Below the pieces are notes generated by a model. It was given only the letters and a program-made list of their open reading frames with translations. It was not told the DNA's origin and made no database searches. Both the position numbers and the translations under genes were made by a program. Positions 34,303 to 60,064 of a stretch of DNA of 64,000 bases are shown here, one piece after another (within the stretch, counting starts at the first letter, position 1; each line of letters starts with the position of its first letter). The stretch comes from a virus. The stretch is taken from positions 62,001 to 126,000 of the IMG/VR virus record IMGVR_UViG_3300030419_007010; one strand, written 5' to 3'.

Positions 34303-34490
34303 TACTGCTCATCAAATTCTGTTTCATCATCATTTTCAAACTTGACGATCGGGGGATTCATAACAAATAATTCTCCCGAGGCCTCTTGAAAGTCAAGATC
34401 TTTAATCATTGGAACAATATCACTTTGCTCCATCAAACACTTTTGCAAGCACATCATTAAAGAACCGACTGCTTCATCTGATAATTTCAT
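34302..34490 (-). CDS. Small acidic conserved phage protein (62 aa)
   Basis: I place the start at 34490 (MKLSDEAVGS) rather than at an in-frame ATG at 34508, because a perfect GGAGG lies six bases before it. The 62-residue product has a Met/Leu/Cys-rich helix (LMMCLQKCLMEQSDIVPMI) and an acidic tail (FENDDETEFDEQ). From memory, short proteins with an LMMxLQKxLMEQSDI pattern and an NPP motif are widespread in marine T4-like phages as hypotheticals. The gene overlaps the epimerase stop by four bases (ATGA) and the zinc-ribbon start by one. It could be a small partner of the late-transcription machinery; this is only a guess from position. Confidence 0.7.
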   Translation of the reverse strand: MKLSDEAVGSLMMCLQKCLMEQSDIVPMIKDLDFQEASGELFVMNPPIVKFENDDETEFDEQ

Positions 34491-35326
34491 TTCAAACCTC
34501 CAAAACATTTTCTAATGCCATCTTCAATTGGCATTTTTACTTTCCAACCTAATCCTGCTAGAGAACTAGTATTGGCTTTTGTATACATCACATCACCAGG
34601 ACGTGGTGCAACATAATCAAACTCGACTTCCGGACAATATTCCAGCACGATCTCTTTCATTTCGTTCAAGGAAATATTATCCCCTGTTCCTGCATCAAAT
34701 ACTCTGCCATCAAATCGATCGTTGTGTTCCATAGCAAAGATATTAGCAGATACTGCGTCATGAACATAAAGCATATCCCTACGCTGATCACCATTGCCAG
34801 TAATAAACGGATTTTTTCCTGTTCTAATATAGTGCATCCAATTACAAACTGCTGTCGCATAAGGGCCAGATGCTTCTTGATCTTCTGAATAAACATTAAA
34901 ATATCGCAGTGTTACTGTATCAATACCATATAGTTGCGAATATAGTTTTGTTTCTAATTCTGAAGTTAATTTTTGTAACGCATACGGGCTTGTTGGACCC
35001 TCTCCGTTACCAACTACAGAGGATGAGCCAGAGTAAATAACTCTTTTTGCTCCTACTTTCTTGGCGAAGTCCAACACTATGCTAGTTGATATAATGTTAT
35101 TAATCGCCGTGTGGACTGGTTGCTCGACGCTGTAAGCGACTCGCGGGATGCACGCTAGGTGGAATATGTATTCTGGTGCAAAGTCGACTAGGTGGTCTAA
35201 ACCATCTAATATATCTTCCTCTTCTAGAAGGTCAATACCTCTCACTTCGTGGCCCAACTCTTCTAATTTCTTATATAAGTGGGTTCCTATATAACCTTTG
35301 TGACCTGTTACTAAACATCTACTCAT
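34487..35326 (-). CDS. NAD-dependent sugar epimerase/dehydratase (extended SDR)
   Basis: A 279-residue extended short-chain dehydrogenase. The Rossmann motif is GHKGYIG (residues 8-14). The catalytic pair is Tyr115 and Lys119 (YALQK), with a Ser-rich YSGSSS segment before it. The C-terminal half has GDQRRDMLYVHDAV, typical of nucleotide-sugar 4-epimerases such as the GalE/WbpP type. At 279 residues it is a little shorter than usual (310-340). It overlaps the upstream UDP-sugar dehydrogenase by eight bases, so the pair is likely coupled and could convert a UDP-hexosaminuronic acid to its C4 epimer. A decarboxylase or reductase activity cannot be excluded. Confidence 0.85.
   Translation of the reverse strand: MSRCLVTGHKGYIGTHLYKKLEELGHEVRGIDLLEEEDILDGLDHLVDFAPEYIFHLACIPRVAYSVEQPVHTAINNIISTSIVLDFAKKVGAKRVIYSGSSSVVGNGEGPTSPYALQKLTSELETKLYSQLYGIDTVTLRYFNVYSEDQEASGPYATAVCNWMHYIRTGKNPFITGNGDQRRDMLYVHDAVSANIFAMEHNDRFDGRVFDAGTGDNISLNEMKEIVLEYCPEVEFDYVAPRPGDVMYTKANTSSLAGLGWKVKMPIEDGIRKCFGGLK
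34497..34501 (-). promoter_or_regulatory. Shine-Dalgarno GGAGG fixing the start at 34490
   Basis: The minus strand reads GGAGG, six bases before ATG at 34490. The alternative in-frame ATG at 34508 has no such site, so this motif decides the start of the 62-residue gene. Confidence 0.8.
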
Positions 35327-36164
35327 CTGATACAGCCCTTCCTTTTAACTGCTCCCAGTCCTTCTCTGGTCTTACTTCTAAATTGGTTTTCCATGCAGCT
35401 TCCGCTATGTTGCTTGATAATCCCAAGCTTCTAGCAAAGTCTGCAAAAGCATTGATATCTTTTGGAAAACAACTACCGCCAAATCCCCATCTGCCATCAG
35501 GGCCGGGGACATTAACATGCGAGTCACCAACTCGGCCGTCTGAAACAAATCCTTCTAGCGCTGTGTCCCAATCTGCTCCGACTTCATCAACTAGCCTTCT
35601 CATTTCATTACAGAAAGCTACTTTGACAGCGAAAAAGACGTTATTAAAATACTTAATAAATTCAGCAGTTTCGTAATCAGTTTCGATTATCTTTGGTCTT
35701 TGAAATCTCATATTATATAATTCAGCAACCCTCTTTGTAGCTTCGGGATAACCTCCTAAAACTATTCTAGCTTGATTCATAAAATCAAACTTTGCAGTTC
35801 TTTCTGTTAAGAATTCCGGATTAAATACAATATTTAAATTAGGAAAATTATTTCTCATTTCCCTTGTTGTCCCGGGAATTACAGTTGACTTAAGCACGAC
35901 GACTGTATCTTCTTTTGGCTTTAAGCTTGATACTTCTTCTAGTACTGAATAGACTATGTTAAGATTAATCGAACCGTCCTTATTCATTGGTGTTGGTACA
36001 GAAACAAAAATAACATCTGATTCTTTTACTACCTCTTCCATAGAGTTCATAGACTTTAATGGGTCTTTGTCATGTACTAAAACCGGGACTACGGGACTTA
36101 GGCCAAACGATATGGACGAGCCAACAAATCCATGCCCAATCACGCCTACTTTTTCTACTTTCAT
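35319..36164 (-). CDS. Short UDP-glucose/GDP-mannose dehydrogenase family protein
   Basis: The 281-residue protein has the NAD-binding GVIGHGFVG (7-15), the SVPTP turn (55-59), KSTVIPGTT (92-100), NPEFLTER (115-122), and the catalytic GFGGSCFPKD with Cys232. These residues mark the four-electron oxidation of a UDP-sugar to a uronic acid. Family members are usually about 430 residues; this one ends after the central dimerisation domain, so the C-terminal UDP-binding domain is absent. The stop is followed by a normal downstream gene and there is no sign of a frameshift, so the short form seems native. A second short paralogue lies at 53350-54141. An AAGGAA ribosome binding site precedes the start. 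Confidence 0.88.
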   Translation of the reverse strand: MKVEKVGVIGHGFVGSSISFGLSPVVPVLVHDKDPLKSMNSMEEVVKESDVIFVSVPTPMNKDGSINLNIVYSVLEEVSSLKPKEDTVVVLKSTVIPGTTREMRNNFPNLNIVFNPEFLTERTAKFDFMNQARIVLGGYPEATKRVAELYNMRFQRPKIIETDYETAEFIKYFNNVFFAVKVAFCNEMRRLVDEVGADWDTALEGFVSDGRVGDSHVNVPGPDGRWGFGGSCFPKDINAFADFARSLGLSSNIAEAAWKTNLEVRPEKDWEQLKGRAVSDE

Positions 36165-36177
36165 TTATTATTTCCTT

Positions 36178-37830
36178 TTATTTTTTATAAACAAGAATAT
36201 CATATTCAATAAAATACAGATAATCTATGTTCGTGTTAAGAAAACATTCTATTGCGTTTGTTGGGGTTTCTACAATAGGTTCTCTGTCATTAAAGCTAGT
36301 ATTTAAAACTATTGGTACACCAGTTTTCATATGAAACTTTTTAATCAAATCATAATACAGCTTATTTTGTTCGGCAGTTACTGTTTGAATTCTCGCTGTT
36401 TGATCTTTGTGTTCAACTGCGGGTGCCTTACCTAACTTGTCCGACTTAAACTTAAATACAAAGCCCATATATGGAGACGGAAAATAGTTTTCGAACCACT
36501 CGTTTCCACACTCCTCAAGAACAGAAGGGGCAAATGGACGATACCATTGTCTGTGTTTTACTTTTTCATTAATTAATGATTTCATCTGATGGCTAATAGG
36601 ATTAGCTAAGATACTTCTGTTTCCTAGCGCGCGTCGGCCAGATTCAGATCTGCCTTGAAAAACACTAATTATATTGTCCTCTATAAGTAACTCAACACAT
36701 TCATCTAAAGAACACTTTCTTACAGCTAGCTTATCAATATTATTTTCGATTGATTTTTCAACATCTTCTCTGCTGTAGACTTCTCCAAGATATGGAGAAA
36801 CAAAATCATCTAGGTTTCTTTCATTGTTTAAAACGGAAAACCAGTGATATTGACATGCACCAATAGATAATCCTCCGTCGTAAGGGACGGGAGGTACAAA
36901 TACATTCTTTATTATTCCATCAAATTTACTCTTAATTTTTCCAGTAAAAGAAGAATTTAAGCTAACGCCGCCGGCTAGGCAAAGATTATCAAATTCAATA
37001 TTATTGTTTTTTGCTAACCCAACCATTTGATTAATAATATCAAAAAGTATATCTTCTGTCACTTTTTGAAGTGCAGCTGCAAGATTCATTTTTTCTTTTT
37101 CATCTTTCTCAGCTATCTTTCTAAATTTGTCTAAATATGGATGAACTACATCTTCTTCTGGAGGAACATACACACCACGTTTATATCCCGGAGGACAGAA
37201 TTTTACATATGGAAAATCTTCAGTAGCCATCTTCATAAAATCTTTGTAATATTTTTGCGGATCTCCAAATGCGGCCATGGCCATAATTGAACCAGCCTGG
37301 TGACCTCTCGGATACCCTGATGATAGCTTAAATATGAACCTTGTGCATCTTCCCCATAAATTACCCAGGCTCATGATATCATTATTTATTTCGAAAAGAT
37401 TTGTTATCTTATTACCTTTTCCATAATATCCAGAAGTAGATATTGAATTGCCTTCTTCGTTTATTCCAGCACTATCAATAGTTAATATTAAGCTATTTTC
37501 ATAGGGAGAGGAATAAAAAGCATGTGCAGCATGACACAAATGATGTCCATAAAAATTAATTTTATCTTTTGATAATCTATCGTGAGTATTATATGTTTCG
37601 CCGCCGTTAGCTTCTAGGTTTGTATTTGGCAAAGGAGAGACCCAATGATCTATATCTTCCATATCCAAGTTATTTTTAGACAAATATTTTTCTTCTAAAT
37701 ATAGTAGAGAATCTCCACCAGATTCTTTTAAGCGAGTATATCTTTCTATTTCAATGTGCTCTACGACTTTTCCGTCATCTAAAACACAATAGCCGCCGTC
37801 GTGCCAATTATATAATCCAACAACTTTCAT
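36178..37830 (-). CDS. Carbamoyltransferase (NodU/CmcH/TobZ family)
   Basis: The 550-residue length and motifs fit the family. The N-terminal Kae1-like domain starts VVGLYNWHDGGYCVL and carries the metal-binding block HHLCHAAHAFY (96-106). Later come CLAGGVSLNSSF, then the C-terminal carbamoyltransferase lobe with QGRSESGRRALGNRSILANP and RQWYRPFAPSV. These enzymes move a carbamoyl group from carbamoyl phosphate, through a carbamoyl-AMP step, to a hydroxyl of a sugar or antibiotic. In this cluster an O-carbamoylated glycan is the likely product. GAGG lies about 8 bases upstream of the ATG, and the gene is three bases after the methyltransferase gene. Confidence 0.93.
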   Translation of the reverse strand: MKVVGLYNWHDGGYCVLDDGKVVEHIEIERYTRLKESGGDSLLYLEEKYLSKNNLDMEDIDHWVSPLPNTNLEANGGETYNTHDRLSKDKINFYGHHLCHAAHAFYSSPYENSLILTIDSAGINEEGNSISTSGYYGKGNKITNLFEINNDIMSLGNLWGRCTRFIFKLSSGYPRGHQAGSIMAMAAFGDPQKYYKDFMKMATEDFPYVKFCPPGYKRGVYVPPEEDVVHPYLDKFRKIAEKDEKEKMNLAAALQKVTEDILFDIINQMVGLAKNNNIEFDNLCLAGGVSLNSSFTGKIKSKFDGIIKNVFVPPVPYDGGLSIGACQYHWFSVLNNERNLDDFVSPYLGEVYSREDVEKSIENNIDKLAVRKCSLDECVELLIEDNIISVFQGRSESGRRALGNRSILANPISHQMKSLINEKVKHRQWYRPFAPSVLEECGNEWFENYFPSPYMGFVFKFKSDKLGKAPAVEHKDQTARIQTVTAEQNKLYYDLIKKFHMKTGVPIVLNTSFNDREPIVETPTNAIECFLNTNIDYLYFIEYDILVYKK

Positions 37831-37833
37831 ATA

Positions 37834-38562
37834 TCATTCCTCAAATTCTTTTTTAATTAAAACTTGTCCATAATCAATTTCGTCATCTGGTACCCTTCTA
37901 TCATCAAAAAAGATTCGCCTGTCCATAATAATAAGCTCTTTTTCATGATCGTCAATCTCGTCAATAGCTTTTGCACACTCAATATTATCTACTTTTTTAG
38001 TAGGAAGATGATAATCATCAAAAAGAAGAAATTTTGTAAATTTATTTTTTGTTAAAATCCAATCAGATTTAGTAGCTTGGTATGTATGGTCTCCATCAAT
38101 ATAAACAAAATCAAATTCTTCATTTAATGATAATAGAATATTTTGTGAAAAGCCTGGGATGAGTTGTATATTATTTTCAGTGAACCAGTGGTTCGGAAAA
38201 GTGTTTCTTAGCCTGTCTACATGATTTTTTGTTTCTTGATTATGGAAAAGTGGGTCTATAGAAACAATCTTGCCTCCGCCGTTTTCTGCTAGTGCTTTGG
38301 CTGCGCATATAGTTCCGTATCCTCTACCAAAACCAATTTCTAGAAATGATTTAAGGTTGTACTTCTTGATTAGATGATATATTAAAATGCCTCTTTCATA
38401 ATTTGGTCTAAAGAAACATCCTACTTTTTTATAGAGTTCGCTGTCAGGTGAACGCGTTTTCTTTGCGGTATGTTCTCCAATTTGATCAAAATCGCCTAGA
38501 TTAATATCGTCTAGTGGATACCCAAGCTCTTCTAACTTTTCTATTATATGAATTTGTTCCAT
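37834..38562 (-). CDS. Class I SAM-dependent methyltransferase (242 aa)
   Basis: Motif I is FLEIGFGRGYG (73-83), followed by an acidic KIVSIDPLF strand and DFVYIDGDHTYQAT, the arrangement of the Methyltransf_24-like class. The substrate is unknown; the neighbours (carbamoyltransferase and glycosyltransferase, one base away) point to a sugar. GGGAGA precedes the ATG by about 6 bases. The protein is soluble with no signal peptide. Residues about 190-215 are rich in Asp/Glu, and the end is charged (QVLIKKEFEE). Another methyltransferase-like protein with the same IDGDH-type motif is at 44407-45060, so the two may be distant duplicates. Confidence 0.82.
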   Translation of the reverse strand: MEQIHIIEKLEELGYPLDDINLGDFDQIGEHTAKKTRSPDSELYKKVGCFFRPNYERGILIYHLIKKYNLKSFLEIGFGRGYGTICAAKALAENGGGKIVSIDPLFHNQETKNHVDRLRNTFPNHWFTENNIQLIPGFSQNILLSLNEEFDFVYIDGDHTYQATKSDWILTKNKFTKFLLFDDYHLPTKKVDNIECAKAIDEIDDHEKELIIMDRRIFFDDRRVPDDEIDYGQVLIKKEFEE

Positions 38563-39183
38563 TTATATCTCCCAATCTTTGTATTCTGGTTCTTTAGTTT
38601 TATTGTTATTATGCATTCTGTAACGATAAAATGGATATCTAAGATGATGAATCTTATAAAAATCACCTAATCTTTTTCGTAAGTTCTCTTCTTCTTTGTG
38701 TCGCATATTAGGATCATATGCACCCATTTCAACAAGTAAATCTTTTCTGTACATTATACCACAAGAAATATTGTCTTTTTCAGCATATTTTCTCTCTAAA
38801 ACATTTTCATAATTGTCTATCAAAATATAGTCACAAGATACACAGAACGCGTCGTGATTTGCTTCTAAATATTCCTTCATAAAATAGCACATATCATCAG
38901 AAACATAATCGTCAGCATCAACACGAATAACAAATTGCCCTTTAGCTGCTTTTATTCCTTTGTTGGCGGAAGCTGCAACTCCTAAATTCTTCTTGTTTTT
39001 TATTAATTTAATGTCATCCAAGAAGGGAACCATAACTTCCCAAGATTTATCTGTGCTCTTATCATCTACAACAATTACTTCAACATTAACATTCTTCTGA
39101 TTTAAACAGCTTCTAATGCATCTAGCAATATATCTTGAATAATTATAGTTAGTTATAATAATTGAAACATCAGGATTAGACAT
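38563..39183 (-). CDS. Family 2 glycosyltransferase (206 aa)
   Basis: I choose ATG at 39183 (MSNPDVSIIITNYNYS) because GAGG lies six bases before it; the in-frame ATG at 39195 has no such spacing. The GT2 core is complete: SIIITNYNYSRYI, VDDKSTDKSWEV, NKGIKAAKG and the DxD-type VDADDY (D89-D92). At 206 residues it is a small, soluble GT-A enzyme that would add one sugar from a nucleotide-sugar donor. No membrane helix is present. It overlaps the asparagine-synthase-type gene by eight bases. Confidence 0.88.
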   Translation of the reverse strand: MSNPDVSIIITNYNYSRYIARCIRSCLNQKNVNVEVIVVDDKSTDKSWEVMVPFLDDIKLIKNKKNLGVAASANKGIKAAKGQFVIRVDADDYVSDDMCYFMKEYLEANHDAFCVSCDYILIDNYENVLERKYAEKDNISCGIMYRKDLLVEMGAYDPNMRHKEEENLRKRLGDFYKIHHLRYPFYRYRMHNNNKTKEPEYKDWEI

Positions 39184-40810
39184 AATTTTCCTCATACCAG
39201 AGACACAAAATCAAAAATGCAAACTTCAAATATCCATTTTTAATGTCTTTGACGTTAAATCCTTCTTTAAAAATATTAGACTTTATAATCTCACAATTAT
39301 TGATTACTTCATCAAACTTGTCATTCCATCCATCAAAACCCAACATAAAGCCAATTTTGTTTCTATGCACAAACTCTTTATCGTAATATTGTTCTAAAAG
39401 TTTTTTGATTGGATACTTACGTATTTTACCAAACATATTCTCATATGTTAAGCGATTTGAATATTCCACTACGCGGTGATCCAAAAAAGGAACTCTAACT
39501 TCTAAAGAGCTAGCCATGCTCATTCTATCTACTTTCTGGAGTATGTCTCCTTCCAGAAAAAATCTAATATCCAGAAGTCTCATTATTTCATTTTTATCTT
39601 TTGTTTCATAAGGCAATTTAGTTAACATATAATCATATGTGTCATTCTTATATTCATTCTGCAAAAAATCTAAATTTGTGTTGCGAAAAAACCTTTCTGA
39701 TATTGGTATTTCCGTATTGTTGTACTTGTTGTAACCACAAAACACTTCATCAGAACCATCTCCGCCTAAAGCGACAGTAACATTGCTAGATATTTTATTG
39801 GATATCAGATAAGTTGGTATAATTGAAGAATCTGCGAAAGGCTGACCAAAGTGTCGAACCAGTTTTCTTAAAAAGTTGAGCTTAATTTCATCGTAATTTA
39901 CAAAGATATCAGTGTGATTTGTCCGACATTTGTTTGCAACCAACAGAGCATACTCTTTTTCATTTAGTTCTTTATCGTTAATAACAGCGGTAAAGGTTTT
40001 GCAATCTTGTTCTATCGATGATAAATGCTGCACAACCAGCGAAGAGTCGACTCCTCCGGAAAGATACGCACCATAAGGTACATCACTTCGCGTTCGTAGG
40101 GAAACCGCGTCACGAAGAAGATTTTCGAGGTACCCTAAATCGCTTTCTTTTCTTTCTTGAGGAGTTAAAGACCAATATTTCTTAATTGAACTAGCTCTGG
40201 TTTTAACATCAAATTCTAAATAATGGCCCTGCTCTAAGCTTCTGATTTCATTCCATATAGTATTTGGAGAAGCAATATAATATGTGTTAAAAAACATAGA
40301 TATAGCGACAGGATCTATTGATAAATTATCTATTCCTACTAAATCTTTTACGGAGTTAATCTCTGAGCAGAACGTTAATCCATTTTGCAGTGAGTAGAAC
40401 AACGGCTTAATGCCCATCCTATCTCTCACCAAAAAAAGCTTTCCTCTTGTTTTGTCATAAAGAGAAAAAGCAAACATTCCATTTAATTCTTTTAATGTTT
40501 TTTCTAAACCAAACTTCTCGTAGTATTTTAATAACACTTCTGTGTCAGAAGAGGTAGAAAATTCGCAATCTAAATCTTCTTTTAATTCTCGATAGTTATA
40601 AATTTCTCCATTAAAAACAAGAACTTTTTGACCATCATCAGAGATCATTGGTTGTTGTCCAGAAGATAAATCAATTATAGAAAGTCTAGTATGACCTAAA
40701 GAAACGTCTTGATCACGATAGAGACCTCTAGAATCTGGTCCGCGGTGACCAATATTATTAAGGAATGTCCTGTCAATAGGATATTTTGTAGAACCAATTA
40801 TTCCGCACAT
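39176..40810 (-). CDS. Glutamine-dependent asparagine synthase family amidotransferase
   Basis: A 544-residue class II amidotransferase. Cys2 (MCGIIGS) is the glutaminase nucleophile; HRGPDSRG and FNGEIYNYREL follow. The synthetase half has the ATP-pyrophosphatase loop SGGVDSS (251-257) and the ADGSDE-like LGGDGSDEVFCGYNKY. Housekeeping AsnB makes asparagine, but family members in O-antigen loci (Pseudomonas WbpS, Francisella WbtH) amidate hexosaminuronic acids. With two UDP-sugar dehydrogenase/epimerase pairs in the cluster, sugar amidation is the more likely role; this is inference. The start overlaps the upstream GT2 gene by 13 bases, and no clear ribosome binding site is seen. Confidence 0.92.
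   Translation of the reverse strand: MCGIIGSTKYPIDRTFLNNIGHRGPDSRGLYRDQDVSLGHTRLSIIDLSSGQQPMISDDGQKVLVFNGEIYNYRELKEDLDCEFSTSSDTEVLLKYYEKFGLEKTLKELNGMFAFSLYDKTRGKLFLVRDRMGIKPLFYSLQNGLTFCSEINSVKDLVGIDNLSIDPVAISMFFNTYYIASPNTIWNEIRSLEQGHYLEFDVKTRASSIKKYWSLTPQERKESDLGYLENLLRDAVSLRTRSDVPYGAYLSGGVDSSLVVQHLSSIEQDCKTFTAVINDKELNEKEYALLVANKCRTNHTDIFVNYDEIKLNFLRKLVRHFGQPFADSSIIPTYLISNKISSNVTVALGGDGSDEVFCGYNKYNNTEIPISERFFRNTNLDFLQNEYKNDTYDYMLTKLPYETKDKNEIMRLLDIRFFLEGDILQKVDRMSMASSLEVRVPFLDHRVVEYSNRLTYENMFGKIRKYPIKKLLEQYYDKEFVHRNKIGFMLGFDGWNDKFDEVINNCEIIKSNIFKEGFNVKDIKNGYLKFAFLILCLWYEENYV
39190..39193 (-). promoter_or_regulatory. Shine-Dalgarno GAGG deciding the GT2 start at 39183
   Basis: The minus strand reads GAGG six bases before ATG at 39183. 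It overlaps the codons of the alternative ATG at 39195, which therefore lacks a usable site. Confidence 0.65.
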
Positions 40811-41643
40811 CTTATAATTTTATACTCAAACTCTGGATAATGGAAATCTCTCACAGTCGGCGTTCCAGATAAGCTAGCTTCTATCACTGGTTTGCGCGCT
40901 AGATTATAGTTTCTTCTCTCTTCAGAATTAATACCGACATTGCTAGAGGCGGTTAAGGACTTGGAATGGAATCTTCTATTATATAAGACTTCCGGCATAT
41001 TATAAATTCTATTCAATCCTAGGATTCTTATGAAAATATCTGTGTCTGCTGCAATCCTAGTCCGGCCGTCCCAGCCTCCTAGGGCTACTAAAATATCTCT
41101 TCTAAATAATACTGTACCGTTCATGCAAAACTTAAACTTAAGATATTCTTCGTAATTTCCGTCTGGCTCTAGAGAAGTTAAAAGATCATTTAAGGTAAAA
41201 GTTTCTATCACTTTTGGATATACATTTTTTCTGCTTCTGCTGCTGTTTTCATTCTCGGATATTGTATGTGGTTCATGATCTTCCCAAAACTCATTTACTG
41301 CTGTGCCTACACATGCAGCACTAGATAATATCATAAAATTTAATTGTTTTTGTAGTCTTTCCGGCTCACTAAAATCATCCGAATCGTGAAGCCCAACATA
41401 TTGTGAGTTGCAATAGTTTTTTAAGACGAAGTTTTTGCCAGCATATGTACCAACATTCTTTTTCGAACAAATAATTGTTATTCTATCATCTTGAAAAGAT
41501 TTGATTTTTTCTACTGTATCGTCGGTACTACAATCATCAAAAATAAATAAATTAAAATTCCTGTACGTCTGATTAAGAATAGAATCTACACATTGTTCTA
41601 TAGTATCAGAAGAGTTATAGGTACATAAAATAATATCAATCAC
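40798..41643 (-). CDS. Family 2 glycosyltransferase (281 aa), GTG start
   Basis: GT2 core: DIILCTYNSSDTIEQC, IFDDCSTDDTVEKI, KKNVGTYAGKNF and the metal site HDSDD (86-90). It continues through an acceptor part with GWDGRTRIAADTDIFIRI. The start codon is GTG at 41643 with GGAG seven bases upstream; it overlaps the formyltransferase gene by eight bases. It is soluble, with no membrane helix. The donor and acceptor are unknown. Confidence 0.88.
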   Translation of the reverse strand: MIDIILCTYNSSDTIEQCVDSILNQTYRNFNLFIFDDCSTDDTVEKIKSFQDDRITIICSKKNVGTYAGKNFVLKNYCNSQYVGLHDSDDFSEPERLQKQLNFMILSSAACVGTAVNEFWEDHEPHTISENENSSRSRKNVYPKVIETFTLNDLLTSLEPDGNYEEYLKFKFCMNGTVLFRRDILVALGGWDGRTRIAADTDIFIRILGLNRIYNMPEVLYNRRFHSKSLTASSNVGINSEERRNYNLARKPVIEASLSGTPTVRDFHYPEFEYKIIRCAE

Positions 41644-43711: not shown

Positions 43712-43712
43712 T

Positions 43713-44405: not shown

Positions 44406-44406
44406 T

Positions 44407-45060: not shown

Positions 45061-45064
45061 GAAT

Positions 45065-47530: not shown

Positions 47531-47543
47531 TAATTTTCCTCAA

Positions 47544-50247: not shown

Positions 50248-50292
50248 TACCTCTTCTCAAACTCAACTATTAAATGCAATTGCTTAATTATA

Positions 50293-50781: not shown

Positions 50782-50812
50782 ATATTATATACATAGAATC
50801 CGGAATCGCCCA

Positions 50813-52407: not shown

Positions 52408-53350
52408 CTTTGTACCATTTTATACATTTTAGTATTCCATCAGATAACGATACATATTTGTGTTCTGGTATGTATGTCTTCAGCAAAGATAAATCTGGCT
52501 GTCGTCTTAGTGTGTCAAAATCACGAGAAGGAAGGTGAACTGGCGTAAACTCTTTTTCTTGGTTACTCAAATCGTGTATAGTTTTTGCTAAATCAATCAT
52601 ACTAATGAGGTTGTCATTACCTAGATTTACCACCTCGTTGGTGGCTAGATCTGCCAGCTTAACCGTTAAATCAACATGATCATCTATATAACAGAAACAC
52701 CGAGTTTGTAAGCCATCTCCTATTATAGTAAAGTCTTCAGAATTATTAACTTTTCTTATAAATTCAGGTATTACTTGACCATACTCGGTATTATCCATCC
52801 TAGTACCGTAAGTATTAAAAATTCTTAATATTAAGAAATCTAGATTATTCTGCTTCGCGAACATCTTAACATAAAAATCTCCAATTACTTTAGAAGACGA
52901 ATAGCTGTCTCGATCTGTAAAGATATTTAATAGTATATGTTCTCTTTCTGAAGTAGGTAAAGGAGGGTTATTACCATAAGCTTCTGAAGTCGACGCATAA
53001 ACAATTTTCTTAATACTTGAGCCTTTTATGGCCTGCAGCATATTTTGTGTTATTAAGATGTTGTTGTTAAAAACATCGTGCGGGATATCATAAAAATACT
53101 TCGTGCCATTAATAGCCGCATAATGATACAGGATATCCGGATTATGTCGAGCAACTATTTGTTTTATCTGCTCGACATTCTCTGTTAAGTCTAATTCATA
53201 AAAAGAAAAATTATCATGATTTGGTAAATTCTCTTTCTTTCCGCGAAAAAAGTTATCAATTCCAATAACTTTATAGCCAATAGATAACAACTTATCAGTT
53301 AAGTGGCTTCCTATAAAACCAGCAGCACCTGTTACTAAAGCAGTTTTCAT
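52391..53350 (-). CDS. NAD-dependent sugar epimerase/dehydratase (extended SDR, second copy)
   Basis: The 319-residue protein has TGAAGFIG (7-14), YASTSEAYG (118-126) and the catalytic Tyr150/Lys154 in YSSSK. It includes NTYGTRM and RCFCYIDDHVDL, which are features of UDP-glucuronate 4-epimerases and UDP-glucuronate decarboxylases. It starts at the last base of the dehydrogenase gene (TAATG), mirroring the pair at 34487-36164. It could convert a UDP-uronic acid to its epimer or to a pentose. ATG-overlap coupling implies one pathway with the dehydrogenase. Confidence 0.87.
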   Translation of the reverse strand: MKTALVTGAAGFIGSHLTDKLLSIGYKVIGIDNFFRGKKENLPNHDNFSFYELDLTENVEQIKQIVARHNPDILYHYAAINGTKYFYDIPHDVFNNNILITQNMLQAIKGSSIKKIVYASTSEAYGNNPPLPTSEREHILLNIFTDRDSYSSSKVIGDFYVKMFAKQNNLDFLILRIFNTYGTRMDNTEYGQVIPEFIRKVNNSEDFTIIGDGLQTRCFCYIDDHVDLTVKLADLATNEVVNLGNDNLISMIDLAKTIHDLSNQEKEFTPVHLPSRDFDTLRRQPDLSLLKTYIPEHKYVSLSDGILKCIKWYKDENLY

Positions 53351-54141
53351 TATTCATCTCTCATACCATCAAAAACAGTAATCTTATATTTTGAATTTTC
53401 TTTTAATAAACAATCAAAAAACTCAACGTTAGTATTCTTTGCTAAAAATGCCATGGCTCTAGTATCTTTAGGAAGACACATACCACCGAAACCACGTAGA
53501 TCAGAATTACAATCTAAATATTTTCCGTTTATTTGATTTCTAAGAGTCATAGTATTTTTAATTTTTGTATAATCAGCGTCTTGTTTTTCACACAACTCAT
53601 AGAAACTATTAGCAAAAGTAACCAAAGTTGCGTTATAAACATTATTATAATATTTACAAAATTCTGCTTCTGTTACCGAAAGCTTTACAAAATTTTCAGG
53701 CAAAGAACCGTGAGCTTTTTTAATCAATTCATAATTTGAATCTGTATTTGCTCCTATTACACAAAGATCATGGTTATTAACAAAATCCTCATACGCACAT
53801 CGTTCTCTTAAAAATTCTGGAACAAAACAAATATTCTTATTTTTAAATCTTTCTTGGAGCTTTTTAGTAGTTCCAGGAGCTACTGTAGACTTAATACAAA
53901 TTAAACCTGAGTAGTTAAGCTCTAGTAGATGAGAAATTACCTCTTCTACAATGCTAGTGTCGCACTCTCCTGTCTCTTTTGACGGTGTAGGTACACATAA
54001 AAAACATATTTCAGTATGTAATACATCCTCGATCTTTGTGTCCATCCTAATATCATGTGCTATTACTTCATGTTTCAGATCTAACAAGCCCTTATATACA
54101 GCTTCACCTACTACTCCTACTCCGATGACTCCTATCTTCAT
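53350..54141 (-). CDS. Short UDP-glucose/GDP-mannose dehydrogenase family protein (second copy)
   Basis: The 263-residue protein has IGVIGVGVVG (3-12), CVPTP (49-53), KSTVAPGTT (84-92), VPEFLRERC, and the catalytic RGFGGMCLPKD with Cys222. Like the protein at 35319-36164 it lacks the C-terminal UDP-binding domain of full-length (about 430-residue) enzymes. The two copies are clearly diverged. It shares one base with both its upstream and downstream genes, so it is translated in series with them. The likely reaction is oxidation of a nucleotide sugar to the uronic acid. Confidence 0.87.
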   Translation of the reverse strand: MKIGVIGVGVVGEAVYKGLLDLKHEVIAHDIRMDTKIEDVLHTEICFLCVPTPSKETGECDTSIVEEVISHLLELNYSGLICIKSTVAPGTTKKLQERFKNKNICFVPEFLRERCAYEDFVNNHDLCVIGANTDSNYELIKKAHGSLPENFVKLSVTEAEFCKYYNNVYNATLVTFANSFYELCEKQDADYTKIKNTMTLRNQINGKYLDCNSDLRGFGGMCLPKDTRAMAFLAKNTNVEFFDCLLKENSKYKITVFDGMRDE

Positions 54142-55043
54142 TATAACCTCTTAAAAAAATCTAAATATTTTTCAATATGTGTATCTAATTTAAACTGTTG
54201 GATATTATTAAAATTCTCTTCAACGTCTTCTTCAGTGGGAAAATAAATTTCTTTTTCTACATCAATAATACAATTGTCATTTAACGTTTGGCTAGCCATC
54301 CCCATATCAGTTGAAATAATTGGAACCTTCATTGCTGGCGCTTCTAGAAGAGATTGTGGGCCGCCTTCGTAACGAGAAGAAACCAAATATAAATCGCACG
54401 CTGCGTACATCTTTTGTACATCTTCCAGAGGAACCATTTCTTTATATGTATATTTTATTCCAGCTTGTTCTAACCGAGATATAACGTATTGTCTGCGCCA
54501 GCCGCCTAATAAAATATGCAAATTATCTTTTTCTAATTTCTCTACATAATCACAAAATAAATCAGGCCCCTTTTCAAGTTTAGGTGTCTTAAGATCAAAA
54601 CCCTCTGTATCTCTCTGGAAAGAGCCGATTATATAATCGTCTTTCGGCAAGCCAAGATATTGACGACAGCCTTGTTTATTAAGCTCATACCAGCATTTTT
54701 CATTATACCAATATCCTATTACTGTAATAGGTTTATTAGTGTGTTCCTTAATGAAATTTTTTGTTTGTTCACAGGGAACATGATAATGATCAACAAACTG
54801 ATCTCTTATTAAAAAATCTTGTTTGTTAAATTTATTTGGAGTAACATGATGAACAGTAAGAACTACTTTTTTTGACATTAGTAAATTAGTATTAATCTTT
54901 TGCCACGAATATCCATCTATTAACCATATAATATCGCTTTCTAATATATTAGTTGTAGAATATTCTTGTTTTTTAAGATACCATTCCTGTGATATTCTAT
55001 CTAAAATCCAGTTTTCTCCTGGGGCTGTTGCAAATACTTTCAT
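54141..55043 (-). CDS. GT-B glycosyltransferase (family 4-like, 300 aa)
   Basis: The C-terminal lobe shows SRYEGGPQSLLEAPAMKVP and IISTDMG, the conserved donor-site region of family 4 (E-G-x-P-x-x-L-x-E). The N-lobe starts KVFATAPGENWILDRI and contains ILLGGWRRQYVISRLEQAGI. AGAGGTTATA precedes the ATG; it overlaps the next gene's start by one base (TAATG) and the upstream gene by four. The protein is soluble. The sugar donor is not predictable from these motifs. Confidence 0.85.
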   Translation of the reverse strand: MKVFATAPGENWILDRISQEWYLKKQEYSTTNILESDIIWLIDGYSWQKINTNLLMSKKVVLTVHHVTPNKFNKQDFLIRDQFVDHYHVPCEQTKNFIKEHTNKPITVIGYWYNEKCWYELNKQGCRQYLGLPKDDYIIGSFQRDTEGFDLKTPKLEKGPDLFCDYVEKLEKDNLHILLGGWRRQYVISRLEQAGIKYTYKEMVPLEDVQKMYAACDLYLVSSRYEGGPQSLLEAPAMKVPIISTDMGMASQTLNDNCIIDVEKEIYFPTEEDVEENFNNIQQFKLDTHIEKYLDFFKRL

Positions 55044-55996
55044 ATAATTTCTTCTACAATCCTCACAAAATCATCAGCATATCTTTCTTGTGTGTAATAT
55101 TGAGCATATTGTAAGCCTTTTTCTACTAGCTTAAGTCTCTCTTCTTCATTATCAATATAAAATGATAACTTTGAAATTATTTCATCGTCAGACATATCCA
55201 TATTAATATCAATAACAAAATCTTTAAACAATAGCTGCTCTTCTCCAGGAATATCTGCTGCTATAGCGCTAGCACACATAGGTATCTCAATATATTTACC
55301 AAATCGAGATTTTGGTTGCCCACTACATGTAACACATATTTTGGCAGAATTTAATGTTTGGGCATATTCAAAACTATTTCTATCTGACGCTGCGTCATGT
55401 AAAAGGCCACCAGGGTGTTGTAAAATCCCGCACCTATACTTTTGTGACATCTTGGGCAAAATGCTAGTCGCCAATCTTATTCTCAACGGATAATGGTCAC
55501 CTAAAATCGATTTAGTGTGGACGGCTCCGGCTAATAAGATATCATATTTCTTTGGAAGCTGGTAATCTTTATAAATCATCTTTTCTGCACAATGTGGAAT
55601 ATTGACAAATTTTATATCTGTACCTTTATATAATTCTTCATACTGTTCCATATCATTAAGATGATGACAAATAACTAATTGTGCGCCGGACTCATCAATT
55701 TCTTTTTTTGTCCACGGTACATCAAACATCTCGTTATAGCGAACACATTTAAGCGGCTTTGCTTTCGAAAACTCTTTTAATTCTAAAGGCTTAAAAGCTA
55801 CAACTATATCCGGTTGTTCATCACCATATATATTATCTATATTCTCCTGCACAGTCTTCGAATCATCATAGTTGGACCAACCCAGGCCGGACCAAGTTAG
55901 TTCTGCCAGTTTACCAATTGCTCGCATACCATGAAATCTAACACGAGACATCTTTGTGTCGTGAGATTTTTTATTACAAAGATAAAGAACTTTCAC
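55040..55996 (-). CDS. Glycosyltransferase-like protein (318 aa), GTG start
   Basis: A 318-residue GT-B-like protein beginning KVLYLCNKKSHDTKMSRVRF. It contains YDILLAGAVHTKSILGDHYPLRI and a C-terminal lobe with SAKICVTCSGQPKSRFGKYI and EIPMCASAIAADIPGEEQL, which resembles the CgeB/glycosyltransferase 92-like or family 1 donor-binding half. Start is GTG at 55996, four bases overlapping the upstream stop (GTGA). No membrane segment. The family assignment is weaker than for its neighbours. Confidence 0.7.
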   Translation of the reverse strand: MKVLYLCNKKSHDTKMSRVRFHGMRAIGKLAELTWSGLGWSNYDDSKTVQENIDNIYGDEQPDIVVAFKPLELKEFSKAKPLKCVRYNEMFDVPWTKKEIDESGAQLVICHHLNDMEQYEELYKGTDIKFVNIPHCAEKMIYKDYQLPKKYDILLAGAVHTKSILGDHYPLRIRLATSILPKMSQKYRCGILQHPGGLLHDAASDRNSFEYAQTLNSAKICVTCSGQPKSRFGKYIEIPMCASAIAADIPGEEQLLFKDFVIDINMDMSDDEIISKLSFYIDNEEERLKLVEKGLQYAQYYTQERYADDFVRIVEEII

Positions 55997-56715
55997 AGAA
56001 ACTTTCTCTTAAGCTGCTCATATAAACATTCTGGATCATATGAAGCATTCTTATCTTGTTCTGCTCGTCTCCACATCTCGTTCCAAAGATGAATACCATA
56101 TACCCCATCGTCAAAATTAAAATTGACTTCAGGATTTAAAAAGATATTCCATAGCGCGCCAGGAATTGGACAAAAAGCAGTGAAGTGTTTTACGAAAGGT
56201 TGTAGCTGGAACGTCTCAACAGATGATTTTACAAGCCTAGGCCCAATCTCTCCCCATACTAGCTTTTCTTTTTCTTTCGACATACAAATATCAAAAGCTC
56301 TTTTTGTTACTGGATTTCCTTTAGGTGCTTTTATAACGCCGGCGTTAATATGCTGGTTCTCTTCTCCAAATGGCATAACTTCTTCAGAGGAAAAAACATA
56401 CGCATCCGGAAAATCAAAGTGCTTCAAACACACCTGATCTGTATCAACCCAATAACCACCCTTCTCATAAAGAAGCTTATATCTAAAATAGTTAGAAAAT
56501 CCAGAATAGCTTTTGTGCTCGCGATAAACAAATATCATATCTCTAGAAAGGATGTCATTACCATCTTTTACTTGTACGCCTTGTGGAACGTTTTTCACAT
56601 CTCCATAAGTATACAAGTGAACTTCGTGCCCGTTCTTCACAAAAGAAGACAAACACAGTTGTTCCATTACAGATAGCTCTTTGCCTATCCAAAGAGATTG
56701 TATAATATTTGACAT
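55993..56715 (-). CDS. Family 32-type glycosyltransferase (DXD sugar-binding)
   Basis: The 240-residue protein carries the classic GT32/capsular-synthesis motif EKGGYWVDTDQVCL (residues 85-98), in which the D-x-D at 91-93 binds metal and nucleotide sugar. It starts IIQSLWIGKELSVMEQ (the W-x-G family start) and has FRYKLLYEKGG. In bacteria such genes usually lie in capsule or O-antigen loci. It overlaps the upstream gene by one base (TAATG) and the downstream one by four (GTGA). Cytoplasmic and soluble. Confidence 0.9.
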   Translation of the reverse strand: MSNIIQSLWIGKELSVMEQLCLSSFVKNGHEVHLYTYGDVKNVPQGVQVKDGNDILSRDMIFVYREHKSYSGFSNYFRYKLLYEKGGYWVDTDQVCLKHFDFPDAYVFSSEEVMPFGEENQHINAGVIKAPKGNPVTKRAFDICMSKEKEKLVWGEIGPRLVKSSVETFQLQPFVKHFTAFCPIPGALWNIFLNPEVNFNFDDGVYGIHLWNEMWRRAEQDKNASYDPECLYEQLKRKFL

Positions 56716-58805
56716 TACCTTACTACTTCACTCCAGAAGCGAGCTGGTACTGCTTTAAGATATTCCTCTGTTACAGACAAATCATCGGTAGCAAACCACT
56801 CTTCATCTTTGTGCTGCACATTATCATTTAAATGAAGCTCACAACCCAGCAGTTTTGCCTCTATAACCATCCTAGGGCAAGTATCTGCTCCAGGGGGCAG
56901 AGAACATAAGCCCTTGGCTCCTGCTAGCATTTGAAGGGTCTCTGCGGGGTTTTTACCATGAATTTTAGTATAATCTAGATTGTTTTCCTTACACCACTCT
57001 TCGGCTTCTGGTGCTCCTTTCACCCAGTTTGGCGATCCGGGAATTAACCAAATATCGTTTTTCTTATCCTTATACTGTTCTCGAAGTTGTTTAATGAAAA
57101 TGAAAAACTCTGGTTCGAAAATAGAAGTCAATCTAATGCAATTATCTTTATTCAAATCTGACATGTTTTCTAGTGTAATTTCCATTTGCTTATCAGACAT
57201 GAAGAAAACCTTATTAGCGTTCTTTAAGAACGTATTTACAGATTTACCATGTTCGGAATCTTTACAATCGCAAGGTGTTCCCTCTAGAGTTTCGTGCAAT
57301 TCCATATTTCTGTATTTACAAAACTTATAATCAAACTCTACTACAAAGTAGTTAATATTTTGCTTTTCAAAAACACTTACTAGCTCTGGATTCATTTGGG
57401 TATTATTACCAAAAATCCAAGTCGCGTCTTTATGGGCTGTTACTAAAGACTCATTTAAATCTTTGCAATTTATCCCGGTATTTAATGCTGGGCATCCTCT
57501 CATTAAAGATCCCAAACTCAATTCTGCTCCTCCCAAAACTTGATTATGGAAGAAGTCGCTAGCAAATATATATTCTAGTTTCTCTGTTACATCTCCTCCG
57601 TAAATTGAGGAGGCCATTTTCTCGTATTGGTTCTCTTCACTAAATGTTTCCAAAATCCAATTTTGCAGCTTCTTTGCCTGTTTTTTAAATCTTCCATGAT
57701 CCTTAAAAACGTCGCGCATCGCAGCTTTACAAGATTTTTCGTCAGGGTAACACCACATAGAGTCTGCTTGAATTACTCCTTCCCAGACAGCTTGCTTTTG
57801 CACCGGCTGTAGTGTGTAATTTATTTTAGAAAAAAGTGGTTTAATTTTTTCTTTTCCTTTTTTACCTTTTACAGGTGCAAACAAGAAATCGCATTGACCG
57901 CTCCACTCCGGAGCAATAACCGGCATACCACTATAAGCTGCTTCAAAAAGAGGAAGACCATAGCCTTCTCCATGGCTAGTAGAAACTATAGCTTTAAGTT
58001 TCGGATTCTTATATAAAGCATGCATTTCTTCGTCAGTCATATTTCCATGAAGAAGATATACCTTACACTTTCTATCAGGATAACTGCTTAAAATATTTTC
58101 TAATTCTTGTTTGCAACTATATCTATCCATTATGTTATTTTTAGATTTATTTGCTTTTATAACAAGACCTACTTCCTCGTCTTTAAATTCTTCAACAAAC
58201 CACTTAATGGTACTATTAAGATTTTTACGTGGGCCCCATTGAGCTACTGTAAGAAAATTAAACTTATAATCTAGTTTTATATCTAATTTTGGCTTTTTCT
58301 CATAAGTTTTAACAGGATACCCAACTGCTTCAATCGGTACGGTACATCTAAAGTCTTTTACTTCTTCTCCTGTTTCATTATTTTTTGCATGATAGCTAGT
58401 CTTTTCAAATACATCTTTTGAGTGGTTAGAAGTAATAACAATTCTATCCATCAGCATGGACTTCTCAACCCATTGTGGAGATATTTTTGTAGTTTCAATA
58501 CCAGCGGTCACACCAACGTTAACGGGAGCTAATTTTTCCCATTCATTTGGTATCGTCACTTGAACGGACATATCATATTGGCCGCCCTGTTGTTGGTGGA
58601 TAATTGTCTTTTTAAGAATTTGATCCATCCAGTCTCTTTCTTCATCTGCTTCGGGAAGCCACCCTGTGTGGCCCCAATTAACAGCAATCAGATAAATATC
58701 AAACTTATCTTCATAAGCTCGGAGGGAGCGCAAAACAAATCTTGTGTGTTCGCCGTAGCCGCTTCTAGTTAGTGCGGGCCCGCGGACTAATACCTTTTTC
58801 CTCAT
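56715..58805 (-). CDS. Tandem glycosyltransferase with two GT-B-like halves (696 aa)
   Basis: Residues 1-410 form a family 4-like GT-B enzyme (start GPALTRSGYGEHTRFVL; donor site near residues 275-300, SHGEGYGLPLFEAAYSGMPV). Residues about 425-696 begin with ASDFFHNQVLGGAELSLGSL and end with KGLCSLPPGADTCPRMVIEA, which reads like a second, divergent GT-B lobe. A fusion could add two sugars in sequence or act as a processive polymerase. The middle Cys-rich segment (GTPCDCKDSEHG) is unusual. AGAGG lies about 5 bases before the ATG; the ends overlap both neighbours by one or four bases. Confidence 0.8.
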   Translation of the reverse strand: MRKKVLVRGPALTRSGYGEHTRFVLRSLRAYEDKFDIYLIAVNWGHTGWLPEADEERDWMDQILKKTIIHQQQGGQYDMSVQVTIPNEWEKLAPVNVGVTAGIETTKISPQWVEKSMLMDRIVITSNHSKDVFEKTSYHAKNNETGEEVKDFRCTVPIEAVGYPVKTYEKKPKLDIKLDYKFNFLTVAQWGPRKNLNSTIKWFVEEFKDEEVGLVIKANKSKNNIMDRYSCKQELENILSSYPDRKCKVYLLHGNMTDEEMHALYKNPKLKAIVSTSHGEGYGLPLFEAAYSGMPVIAPEWSGQCDFLFAPVKGKKGKEKIKPLFSKINYTLQPVQKQAVWEGVIQADSMWCYPDEKSCKAAMRDVFKDHGRFKKQAKKLQNWILETFSEENQYEKMASSIYGGDVTEKLEYIFASDFFHNQVLGGAELSLGSLMRGCPALNTGINCKDLNESLVTAHKDATWIFGNNTQMNPELVSVFEKQNINYFVVEFDYKFCKYRNMELHETLEGTPCDCKDSEHGKSVNTFLKNANKVFFMSDKQMEITLENMSDLNKDNCIRLTSIFEPEFFIFIKQLREQYKDKKNDIWLIPGSPNWVKGAPEAEEWCKENNLDYTKIHGKNPAETLQMLAGAKGLCSLPPGADTCPRMVIEAKLLGCELHLNDNVQHKDEEWFATDDLSVTEEYLKAVPARFWSEVVR

Positions 58806-60064
58806 GATACCTCTATAAGTTCGTATTTTTTATAACCTTTTCTATTTTCCCATGAACCGTACTCTTCATGAATACGGAGCATTAAAGATTCCCAGTTATT
58901 TTTATAATTTTCAAAATTGTAATTGTTTACAACATGTTGTCTGCCAGCAGCGCCAGTTTCTGCGCGCTCTTCAGGAGTCATATTATAAATCTTAAGCATG
59001 GCATCAACTAAATCTTTTCCACTAATTCTATCTTCATAAATCCATGGAATAGGCTGTGAGCCGATAATAGCTTTTGAAGACGGCTCAATCCCAACACCAA
59101 ACCAATTCTCTCCGTCAGTTACCTGCTCTTGCAACCCACCGGTCATATTAACAATAATAGGAGTTTCAGTCGACAAAGCTTCCAAAGTAGCAAGACCAAA
59201 ACCTTCTGCATCAGAAATATTTATAACACAATCGGACGAGTTATAGATAAGAGAAAGAACTTCAGGAGGAACTTTATTCTGCGAGAACATAACTTCTCCA
59301 TTTGTTAAGCCTAGATGTTCAATAATTGCTTGAAGGTCTTGACCGTGCTCATCTTTAACATCTGTATGCATAACAAGACACGCTTTATCATGACCAACTT
59401 CATCCAGGAAGTCTTTAAACCAGAATATTAAACTTCCAGACTGCTTTCTTCGTGCATTTCTATTGTTCCAAAAAAATACGAATCTGTCATCATTAATTTC
59501 AGGCATATTCTCATTCTTAAATTTTTCAATTTCCTCTTCGGATTTCTTTGAAAAAACATCAGTATCTACTGAATGAGGAAGATATAAAGAATCAACGTCC
59601 GGGGCCACGTTCTTTACAATGTCTGCTGTAACTTTTGATATCGCCGCGATTACGTCTGTAGACTCATAGAATGGTCTGTTAAATGTAGGATATGGTTTGT
59701 TATCCCAAACATGATAATAAACCATGGGCATATGGGGTCGAATCTCATCTTCTATATCCCATAACCATCCATAAAATCTAGGATCTGTCATAAACCACAA
59801 AATATCTGGCTTTTCATTACGCATAATGGAGCGGATCATATCTTGTGTTCCATATCCATCAACTGGATAAATAATCCAATCATCCCCCCACTCTTCGGTT
59901 TTTGTTGGGTTATAGTCGTGGTGTTTAACAGCACCGCCGAGACAAGTAAACTTAAACTTGCCTGTCGGTAACAGTGATTCAATCATATATTTTGTTTGTG
60001 TTCCAACACCTGATGGTGATAGAGGGTGGTCACTTAAGACAAGAACCTTGATTTTTTTATCCAT
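58802..60064 (-). CDS. Family 4 glycosyltransferase (420 aa)
   Basis: I place the start at 60064 (MDKKIKVLVLSDHPLSPSGV) because GAGG lies five bases before it; the in-frame ATG at 60085 overlaps the nuclease gene. The family 4 donor motif is ISDAEGFGLATLEALSTETP near residue 285, with an NNRNARRKQSGSLI loop. An acceptor part with GVGTQTKYMIES comes first. It is the first gene of the sugar cluster in the direction of transcription, following the nuclease gene. The C-terminus overlaps the next gene by four bases (ATGA). Confidence 0.9.
   Translation of the reverse strand: MDKKIKVLVLSDHPLSPSGVGTQTKYMIESLLPTGKFKFTCLGGAVKHHDYNPTKTEEWGDDWIIYPVDGYGTQDMIRSIMRNEKPDILWFMTDPRFYGWLWDIEDEIRPHMPMVYYHVWDNKPYPTFNRPFYESTDVIAAISKVTADIVKNVAPDVDSLYLPHSVDTDVFSKKSEEEIEKFKNENMPEINDDRFVFFWNNRNARRKQSGSLIFWFKDFLDEVGHDKACLVMHTDVKDEHGQDLQAIIEHLGLTNGEVMFSQNKVPPEVLSLIYNSSDCVINISDAEGFGLATLEALSTETPIIVNMTGGLQEQVTDGENWFGVGIEPSSKAIIGSQPIPWIYEDRISGKDLVDAMLKIYNMTPEERAETGAAGRQHVVNNYNFENYKNNWESLMLRIHEEYGSWENRKGYKKYELIEVS

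What the first reader, a model, noticed from the sequence alone, without database searches (positions are those of the whole stretch)
34487..60064. A 25.6 kb phage glycan factory without any membrane component
Twenty-eight consecutive genes encode about ten glycosyltransferases and enzymes for uronic acids, amidation, carbamoylation, formylation, deacetylation, acetylation, methylation and nonulosonate synthesis. That is about 40 % of the window. No flippase, polymerase, ligase or membrane glycosyltransferase was seen, unlike bacterial O-antigen and capsule loci. The target may be a soluble one (virion proteins or, less likely, DNA) or a host lipid-linked glycan. The layout is seen directly; the target is inference.
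Basis: partly seen in the sequence, partly recalled or inferred. Interest (0 to 1): 0.8.

Follow-up and report, generated by a model that had tools for sequence, protein, structure and literature searches.

The report
Phage island for decorating its particles
A marine phage carries 28 consecutive genes for building an elaborate sugar chain without any membrane machinery; relatives keep the same two sugar-adding enzymes at the start but swap nearly everything after them, which suggests (without proof) that these phages coat their own particles with strain-specific sugars.

Summary
Confirmed: 28 back-to-back genes (34487-60085, minus strand) encode 8 Pfam-supported glycosyltransferases, 2 inferred ones and about 16 sugar-making or sugar-modifying enzymes with catalytic motifs intact. 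No flippase, polymerase/ligase or initiating phosphosugar transferase was found in the 161.7-kb phage record or in 14 relatives. The phage is a distant relative of Flavobacterium Immutovirus.

The region is two things. A rigid core (PhoH, PD-(D/E)XK nuclease, GT427, N-half of GT696) recurs in marine phages: at least 594 contigs encode a GT427 relative. Behind it lies a hypervariable cassette: over 97 loci, 785 proteins fall into 357 families, mean pairwise sharing is 3%, and none has 3 or more membrane helices. GT427's nearest solved structure, by sequence and by fold, is a glycosyltransferase of a chlorovirus, a virus group that glycosylates its own capsid in the cytoplasm. The capsid protein of this lineage has a hypervariable, Ser/Thr-rich insert.

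Best reading (0.55): cytosolic glycosylation of virion proteins with a constant core and variable outer sugars. Host-surface modification remains possible; DNA glycosylation is unlikely. 'LPS' clusters of unknown function are already known in marine T4-like phages, so this is a new variant of a known kind that makes their function testable.

The parts
62115..63428 (-). PIN-PhoH protein, upstream anchor of the conserved core
   Evidence: Pfam PhoH 5.5e-52, PIN_4 6.9e-26; conserved at the same place in relatives
60076..60852 (-). PD-(D/E)XK nuclease, conserved neighbour of the core GTs
   Evidence: PF12705 1.7e-19; within 3 genes upstream of GT427 in 107 of 112 loci
58802..60085 (-). GT427: core GT4-type glycosyltransferase (likely start 60064); EX7E motif
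   Evidence: PF00534 6.7e-12; AF2 pLDDT 87; nearest solved structure chlorovirus B736L by phmmer, hmmsearch and Foldseek
56715..58805 (-). GT696: core GT4-type glycosyltransferase (residues 1-406 conserved) with an exchangeable C-terminal half
   Evidence: PF00534 5.9e-07; found downstream of GT427 in 109 of 110 loci; C-terminal half varies or is a separate ORF in relatives
55993..56715 (-). DXD sugar-binding glycosyltransferase (GT32-like)
   Evidence: PF04488 1.3e-06
55040..55996 (-). GT-B glycosyltransferase, weak
   Evidence: PF13524 3.2e-05, just below cut-off
54141..55043 (-). GT4-like glycosyltransferase
   Evidence: PF00534 3.9e-14
53350..54141 (-). Short UDP-sugar 6-dehydrogenase, catalytic GGMCLPKD present, C-terminal domain absent
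   Evidence: PF03721/PF00984; motif
52391..53350 (-). NAD sugar epimerase/dehydratase
   Evidence: PF01370 2.9e-55; nearest NCBIfam models LegB/TviC, below cut-off
51496..52407 (-). GT1/GT4-like glycosyltransferase
   Evidence: PF13692 6e-06, at cut-off
50813..51511 (-). DUF2334 polysaccharide-deacetylase-like protein
   Evidence: PF10096 2.9e-12
50293..50781 (-). GNAT acetyltransferase
   Evidence: PF13302 3e-14
49639..50247 (-). Methyltransferase, weak
   Evidence: PF08242 0.0017, below cut-off
48629..49642 (-). Nucleotide-sugar 4,6-dehydratase
   Evidence: PF16363 2.6e-46; TIGR01181 3.9e-79, below equivalog cut-off
47544..48668 (-). DegT aminotransferase, PseC/LegC-like
   Evidence: PF01041 1.9e-87; PseC 5.3e-71, below equivalog cut-off
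46724..47530 (-). Inferred GT-A glycosyltransferase (LDCD DxD motif), no Pfam hit
   Evidence: PDB sequence search uninformative
45750..46742 (-). GT-B-fold protein nearest NeuC/UDP-GlcNAc 2-epimerase; either a nonulosonate-pathway enzyme or a GT
   Evidence: AF2 pLDDT 70; Foldseek top 5zlr NeuC 3.4e-10
45065..45757 (-). CMP-sugar (nonulosonate-type) cytidylyltransferase
   Evidence: PF02348 2.8e-26; PseF 1.3e-29, below equivalog cut-off
44407..45060 (-). Methyltransferase
   Evidence: PF13578 4.4e-09
43713..44405 (-). FkbM methyltransferase
   Evidence: PF05050 6.9e-08
43004..43735 (-). NeuB/PseI-type nonulosonate synthase, without the C-terminal SAF domain
   Evidence: PF03102 1.3e-29; only 2 of 50,697 phage records have a match
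42328..43017 (-). PIG-L de-N-acetylase (AHQDDE motif)
   Evidence: PF02585 6.5e-29; motif
41636..42331 (-). Sugar N-formyltransferase
   Evidence: PF00551 3.8e-14
40798..41643 (-). GT2 glycosyltransferase
   Evidence: PF00535 1.3e-28
39176..40810 (-). AsnB-like amidotransferase (MCGI, SGGVDS), candidate uronamide synthase
   Evidence: PF00733 4.3e-68; motifs
38563..39195 (-). GT2 glycosyltransferase
   Evidence: PF00535 8.4e-33
37834..38562 (-). Methyltransferase
   Evidence: PF13578 2e-15
36178..37830 (-). Carbamoyltransferase
   Evidence: PF16861 4.6e-63, PF02543 4.6e-28
35319..36164 (-). Short UDP-sugar 6-dehydrogenase (GGSCFPKD)
   Evidence: TIGR03026 1.4e-58, above cut-off; motif
34487..35326 (-). 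NAD sugar epimerase
   Evidence: PF01370 4.1e-42
32978..34508 (-). Conserved downstream boundary: small protein, FmdB-like regulator, small membrane protein, late sigma (gp55-like)
   Evidence: phrog_385/phrog_234; marks the cassette end in relatives

Best explanation
A virion-glycosylation island. Shown: one uninterrupted run of soluble sugar-nucleotide enzymes and transferases, with two invariant GT4 enzymes at its upstream end and an exchangeable cassette behind them, in a T4-like marine phage lineage. Inferred: during infection GT427 and GT696 start a glycan in the cytosol on an abundant virion protein. The best candidate is the Ser/Thr-rich insert of the major capsid protein; tail proteins are an alternative. 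The cassette enzymes then make and add virus-specific outer sugars: uronic acids amidated by the AsnB-like enzyme, formamido and carbamoyl sugars, O-methyl groups and a nonulosonic acid. The result would be a phage 'serotype' that shields or retargets the particle. No lipid carrier, flippase or ligase is needed because the acceptor never leaves the cytosol before lysis.
For: No Wzx, Wzy/ligase or initiating phosphosugar transferase in 15 phage records, while bacterial controls ring. None of 785 cassette proteins in 97 loci has 3 or more helices, while the same rule gives 7-12 helices for 8 of 8 bacterial flippases. The GT427-GT696 pair is conserved across the lineage, GT427 is in 7 of 9 large relatives chosen by terminase alone, and the pair is in cultured Immutovirus, Mel-JY01 and RM378. 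GT427's nearest solved structure is chlorovirus B736L: full-length profile match 2.2e-19, Foldseek 4.2e-22. Chloroviruses glycosylate their capsid in the cytoplasm with mostly soluble GTs (PMC5408694), with a conserved glycan core and virus-specific outer sugars (PMC9614988). The capsid insert (about residues 176-350) averages 13-47% per-block identity against 55-99% for most of the rest and is Ser/Thr-enriched in 81 of 81 homologues.
Against: No glycan or acceptor has been demonstrated. B736L's own acceptor is unknown, and the NY-2A capsid glycan lacks mannose (PMC9614988). Soluble GTs are also normal in LPS pathways, so lack of helices in GTs alone is weak; only the missing flippase, ligase and initiator count, and the host could supply these. 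Surface inserts of capsid proteins evolve fast and can be Ser/Thr-rich without being glycosylated. Authors of a pelagimyophage study favoured host O-chain modification for similar genes (PMC7029224).
Confidence: 0.55

Rival explanations
1. Host-surface conversion during infection: the phage enzymes make sugars and extend or modify a host lipid-linked O-antigen or S-layer-type glycan, using the host's own flippase and ligase, to block superinfection or re-adsorption to debris.
For: Gene types match O-antigen and capsule chemistry. Similar GT islands in pelagimyophages were read this way (PMC7029224). Hypervariability resembles O-antigen loci.
Against: No initiating transferase, flippase or polymerase in any of 15 records, nor a flippase in P-SSM2, S-SSM7 and four other phages. 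Making roughly 26 enzymes in a lytic infection is costly if only the dying cell benefits. The two core GTs are lineage-wide phage genes: the bacterial-genome scan found only 10 loci, in MAGs of mixed phyla, mostly on short contigs that look viral.
Confidence: 0.27
2. DNA hypermodification: the transferases decorate modified bases in the phage genome to resist nucleases.
For: Phage GTs are classically known for DNA glucosylation; a PD-(D/E)XK nuclease sits beside the core GTs.
Against: No thymidylate-synthase/hydroxymethylase family member in 15 records. TET/JBP search also negative, but without a positive control. Uronamide, nonulosonate and some ten different GTs have no precedent on DNA that I know of.
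Confidence: 0.05
3. A soluble or secreted glycoconjugate, or tail-fibre-specific decoration that acts as receptor mimicry rather than capsid coating.
For: The cassette lies a few genes from the endolysin/tail block, and very large fibre-like proteins (3571 and 2877 aa) are encoded near it.
Against: Nothing specifically links the GTs to those proteins.
Confidence: 0.1
4. Stuffer or passenger DNA with no selected function.
For: Raised as a possibility for cyanophage LPS clusters (PMC3037559).
Against: All genes open, gapless and with intact catalytic motifs; core pair well conserved, GT427 at about 60% identity.
Confidence: 0.03

Closest known systems
Chlorovirus (PBCV-1/NY-2A) autonomous capsid glycosylation
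   Same: Mostly soluble cytosolic GTs; conserved glycan core with virus-specific outer sugars; GT427 is nearest in sequence and fold to NY-2A B736L
   Different: Eukaryotic virus with GT genes scattered through its genome; here one contiguous island in a tailed phage; acceptor not shown here, and B736L's acceptor is also unknown
'LPS' gene clusters of T4-like cyanophages P-SSM2 and S-SSM7
   Same: Large sugar-gene clusters in marine T4-like phages, in P-SSM2 near phoH; no flippase family member
   Different: No GT427 homologue found there; the fixed two-GT core with an exchangeable cassette has not, to my knowledge, been described for them
Hypervariable host-recognition cluster of pelagimyophages
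   Same: Hypervariable island with glycosyltransferases and uronate enzymes (PMC7029224)
   Different: GTs there are mixed with tail fibres and dominated by GT8; here a pure sugar cassette anchored by two GT4 enzymes
Immutovirus (Flavobacterium) GT island
   Same: PDDEXK - GT427 homologue - GT696 homologue, then 11 more mostly sugar-related genes, no TM proteins
   Different: About half the size, different cargo; 31-33% identity in the core GTs
Mycobacteriophage virion glycosylation (Freeman et al. 2023, as cited in PMC12619734)
   Same: Phage-encoded GTs decorating capsid and tail-tube proteins
   Different: Few GTs; no sugar-synthesis island of this size known to me; the primary paper was not readable here

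Membership tests
Bacterial Wzx/Wzy-type polysaccharide locus | Flippase (PF01943) | tested here: not met
   0 of 15 records; controls ring in 13 of 14 genomes
Bacterial Wzx/Wzy-type polysaccharide locus | Polymerase/ligase (PF04932) and initiating transferase (PF02397) | tested here: not met
   0 of 15 each, controls ring
Autonomous virion glycosylation (chlorovirus-like) | Soluble virus-encoded GTs and nucleotide-sugar enzymes | tested here: met
Autonomous virion glycosylation (chlorovirus-like) | Conserved core GTs with virus-specific outer-sugar genes | tested here: met
   (genes only; the glycan structure is unknown)
Autonomous virion glycosylation (chlorovirus-like) | Glycan attached to a structural protein | not testable with these tools
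   Needs glycoproteomics; the capsid insert is only a candidate
Autonomous virion glycosylation (chlorovirus-like) | Homology of a core GT to a chlorovirus GT | tested here: met
   3oy2 full-length, best of all PDB; B736L's own role is unproven
Phage DNA glycosylation (T4 type) | Base hydroxymethylase of the thymidylate-synthase family | tested here: not met
   0 of 15, controls ring in 9 of 14 genomes
Phage DNA glycosylation (TET type) | TET/JBP dioxygenase | tested here: inconclusive
   0 of 15, but no control rang
Nonulosonate (Pse/Leg) pathway | Complete set: dehydratase, aminotransferase, acetyltransferase, UDP-sugar hydrolase, synthase, CMP transferase | tested here: inconclusive
   Five steps have family-level matches; the four run against NCBIfam are all below their equivalog cut-offs, the acetyltransferase has Pfam only; the hydrolase could be 45750-46742, with NeuC-like fold at modest confidence

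The most novel reading that the evidence does not exclude
A 'phage serotype' system: a large, mostly uncultured marine T4-like phage lineage builds a complex glycan on its own capsid entirely in the cytosol, with two invariant GTs laying a common root and a freely exchanged cassette giving each phage a different outer sugar. This would be the tailed-phage counterpart of chlorovirus capsid glycosylation and of bacterial O-antigen diversity.
Probability: 0.42. Interest if true: 0.87.

Novelty: new variant of a known kind. Interest (0 to 1): 0.64.

Why it matters
Large sugar-gene clusters in marine T4-like phages have lacked a tested function since they were described; the 2010 comparison could not tell whether they are functional or stuffer DNA (PMC3037559). 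The constant-core, variable-cassette layout, the lineage-wide absence of membrane steps and a cultured relative with a smaller version (Immutovirus on Flavobacterium sp. LMO8) turn that into a concrete experiment. If virions are the target, particle glycosylation and antigen-like diversity would be a widespread trait of marine phages and a source of soluble enzymes for rare sugars.

Tried and rejected
Megablast of the cluster against phages: no match. Sigma-70 and terminator scan: no more than chance. T4 late-promoter TATAAATA: not associated with gene starts. Codon usage of the cassette: not exceptional (9th of 145 same-size blocks), so no clear sign of recent acquisition as a whole; its GC is lower, 33.7% against 38.3%. 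Host assignment by DegT: best Bacteroidota match 48%, uninformative without the other phyla. Terminase points to Immutovirus (Flavobacterium) and Mel-JY01 (Microcystis) equally, so the host is undetermined. GTDB hits of GT427 lie in MAGs of mixed phyla, mostly on short contigs that look like binned viral fragments. Maf-like PF01973 was checked as a direct protein-glycosyltransferase clue: present in 4-5 of 28 relatives, absent in this genome. The O-glycosylation sequon D-S/T-hydrophobic is denser in the capsid insert than elsewhere, but by rough estimate not much more than its composition gives, so I do not use it.

Full report
What is there. Between 34487 and 60085 the minus strand carries 28 ORFs with no real intergenic space. 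Eight glycosyltransferases are supported by Pfam, two of them marginally. A ninth is inferred from a DxD motif. A tenth has a GT-B fold nearest NeuC and UDP-GlcNAc 2-epimerases and may instead be a nonulosonate-pathway enzyme. Catalytic motifs are intact wherever they could be read. A nonulosonate synthase is rare in phages: 2 of 50,697 records, one of them filed under a bacterium (Moritella viscosa).

What carries it. The window is bases 62001-126000 of a 161,727-base IMG/VR virus record. I read the rest and compared it with phage records. It is a T4-like myovirus distantly related to Flavobacterium Immutovirus: terminase 43%, portal 40%, capsid parts 46-47%. Terminase matches Microcystis phage Mel-JY01 equally well, so the host cannot be named.

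No membrane step. Flippase, polymerase/ligase and initiating-transferase families are absent from this genome and 14 relatives, with bacterial controls positive. A flippase is also absent from P-SSM2, S-SSM7, a marine single-cell virus, RM378, Immutovirus and Mel-JY01. The records may be incomplete.

Core and cassette. In relatives found with the 696-residue transferase, and again with the 427-residue one, the same start recurs: PhoH, small proteins, PD-(D/E)XK nuclease, GT427, GT696 N-half. The nuclease lies within three genes upstream in 107 of 112 loci and GT696 downstream in 109 of 110. What follows is different almost every time. In 97 loci whose GT427 is at least 50% identical, 785 cassette proteins form 357 families, 214 of them singletons, and two loci share on average 3% of families. 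Loci end 10 kb past the match, so most cassettes were not read in full, and a few loci are overlapping contigs. Of the 785 proteins, 763 have no predicted helix, 20 have one, 2 have two and none has three or more. The same rule finds 7-12 in each of eight bacterial flippases. Representative cassette proteins are transferases, epimerases, methyltransferases, sulfotransferases, radical-SAM/B12 proteins and others. At the far end a conserved block with a late sigma factor closes the cassette. In a deeper branch the core pair sits almost directly against that block, with the sugar genes on the other side.

The core transferases. In bacterial genomes only 10 loci turned up, in MAGs of mixed phyla, mostly on short contigs. 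Among nine large contigs selected by terminase alone, seven carry it. Rhodothermus phage RM378 carries both core transferases side by side. The model of GT427 is good (pLDDT 87). Its best solved relative is the chlorovirus NY-2A protein B736L by single sequence (1.5e-7), by profile over the full length (2.2e-19, next best 6e-13) and by fold (4.2e-22).

How it most likely works. Chloroviruses glycosylate their major capsid protein in the cytoplasm with mostly soluble enzymes (PMC5408694), using a conserved core and virus-specific outer sugars (PMC9614988). The phage island has the same logic at gene level. A plausible acceptor exists: the major capsid protein has an insert (about residues 176-350) where block identity among 81 homologues falls to 13-47%, against 55-99% for most of the rest, and this region is richer in Ser/Thr in all 81. 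These points are indirect. B736L's acceptor is itself unknown, soluble transferases are normal in LPS pathways, and the authors of the pelagimyophage study read similar genes as host O-chain modifiers (PMC7029224). I therefore give virion glycosylation 0.55 and host-surface modification 0.27. DNA glycosylation is unlikely: no hydroxymethylase family in 15 records, though the TET/JBP test had no control.

Novelty. Large 'LPS' clusters in marine T4-like phages are known and unexplained (PMC3037559), and large aquatic 'moraphages' have four core glycosyltransferases (PMC12619734). New here, to my knowledge, are the fixed two-transferase core with an exchangeable cassette over about a hundred loci, the quantified lack of membrane proteins, the chlorovirus link and the capsid insert. 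That makes it a new variant of a known kind, and testable in a cultured relative.

Noticed in passing
L032:665-1016 minus (G000 144665-145016), outside the window: Phage-encoded full-length tmRNA, tag ANDNVANYALAA (Rfam RF00023, 134.9 bits); only one tRNA gene (Thr) elsewhere in the genome.
   Followed up: partly
5982-16697 and 20498-29131: Two giant structural-region proteins of 3571 and 2877 aa; the first has a MAM domain, the second no Pfam match.
   Followed up: partly
L028:13626-15461 (G000 28626-30461): Major capsid protein with a hypervariable, Ser/Thr-rich insert in 81 homologues.
   Followed up: partly
35319-36164, 53350-54141, 43004-43735: Miniaturised enzymes: sugar dehydrogenases without the UDP-binding C-terminal domain and NeuB without its SAF domain, active sites kept.
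   Followed up: no
56715-58805, residues about 410-696: C-terminal half of GT696 is modular: fused, exchanged or encoded as a separate ORF in relatives.
   Followed up: partly
Cassettes of relatives, e.g. L086, L097, L064: Maf/MptE-like PF01973 proteins (a family that includes flagellin nonulosonate transferases), sulfotransferases and radical-SAM/B12 enzymes occur in other cassettes.
   Followed up: partly
62115-63428: PhoH fused to an N-terminal PIN domain, conserved next to the core.
   Followed up: no
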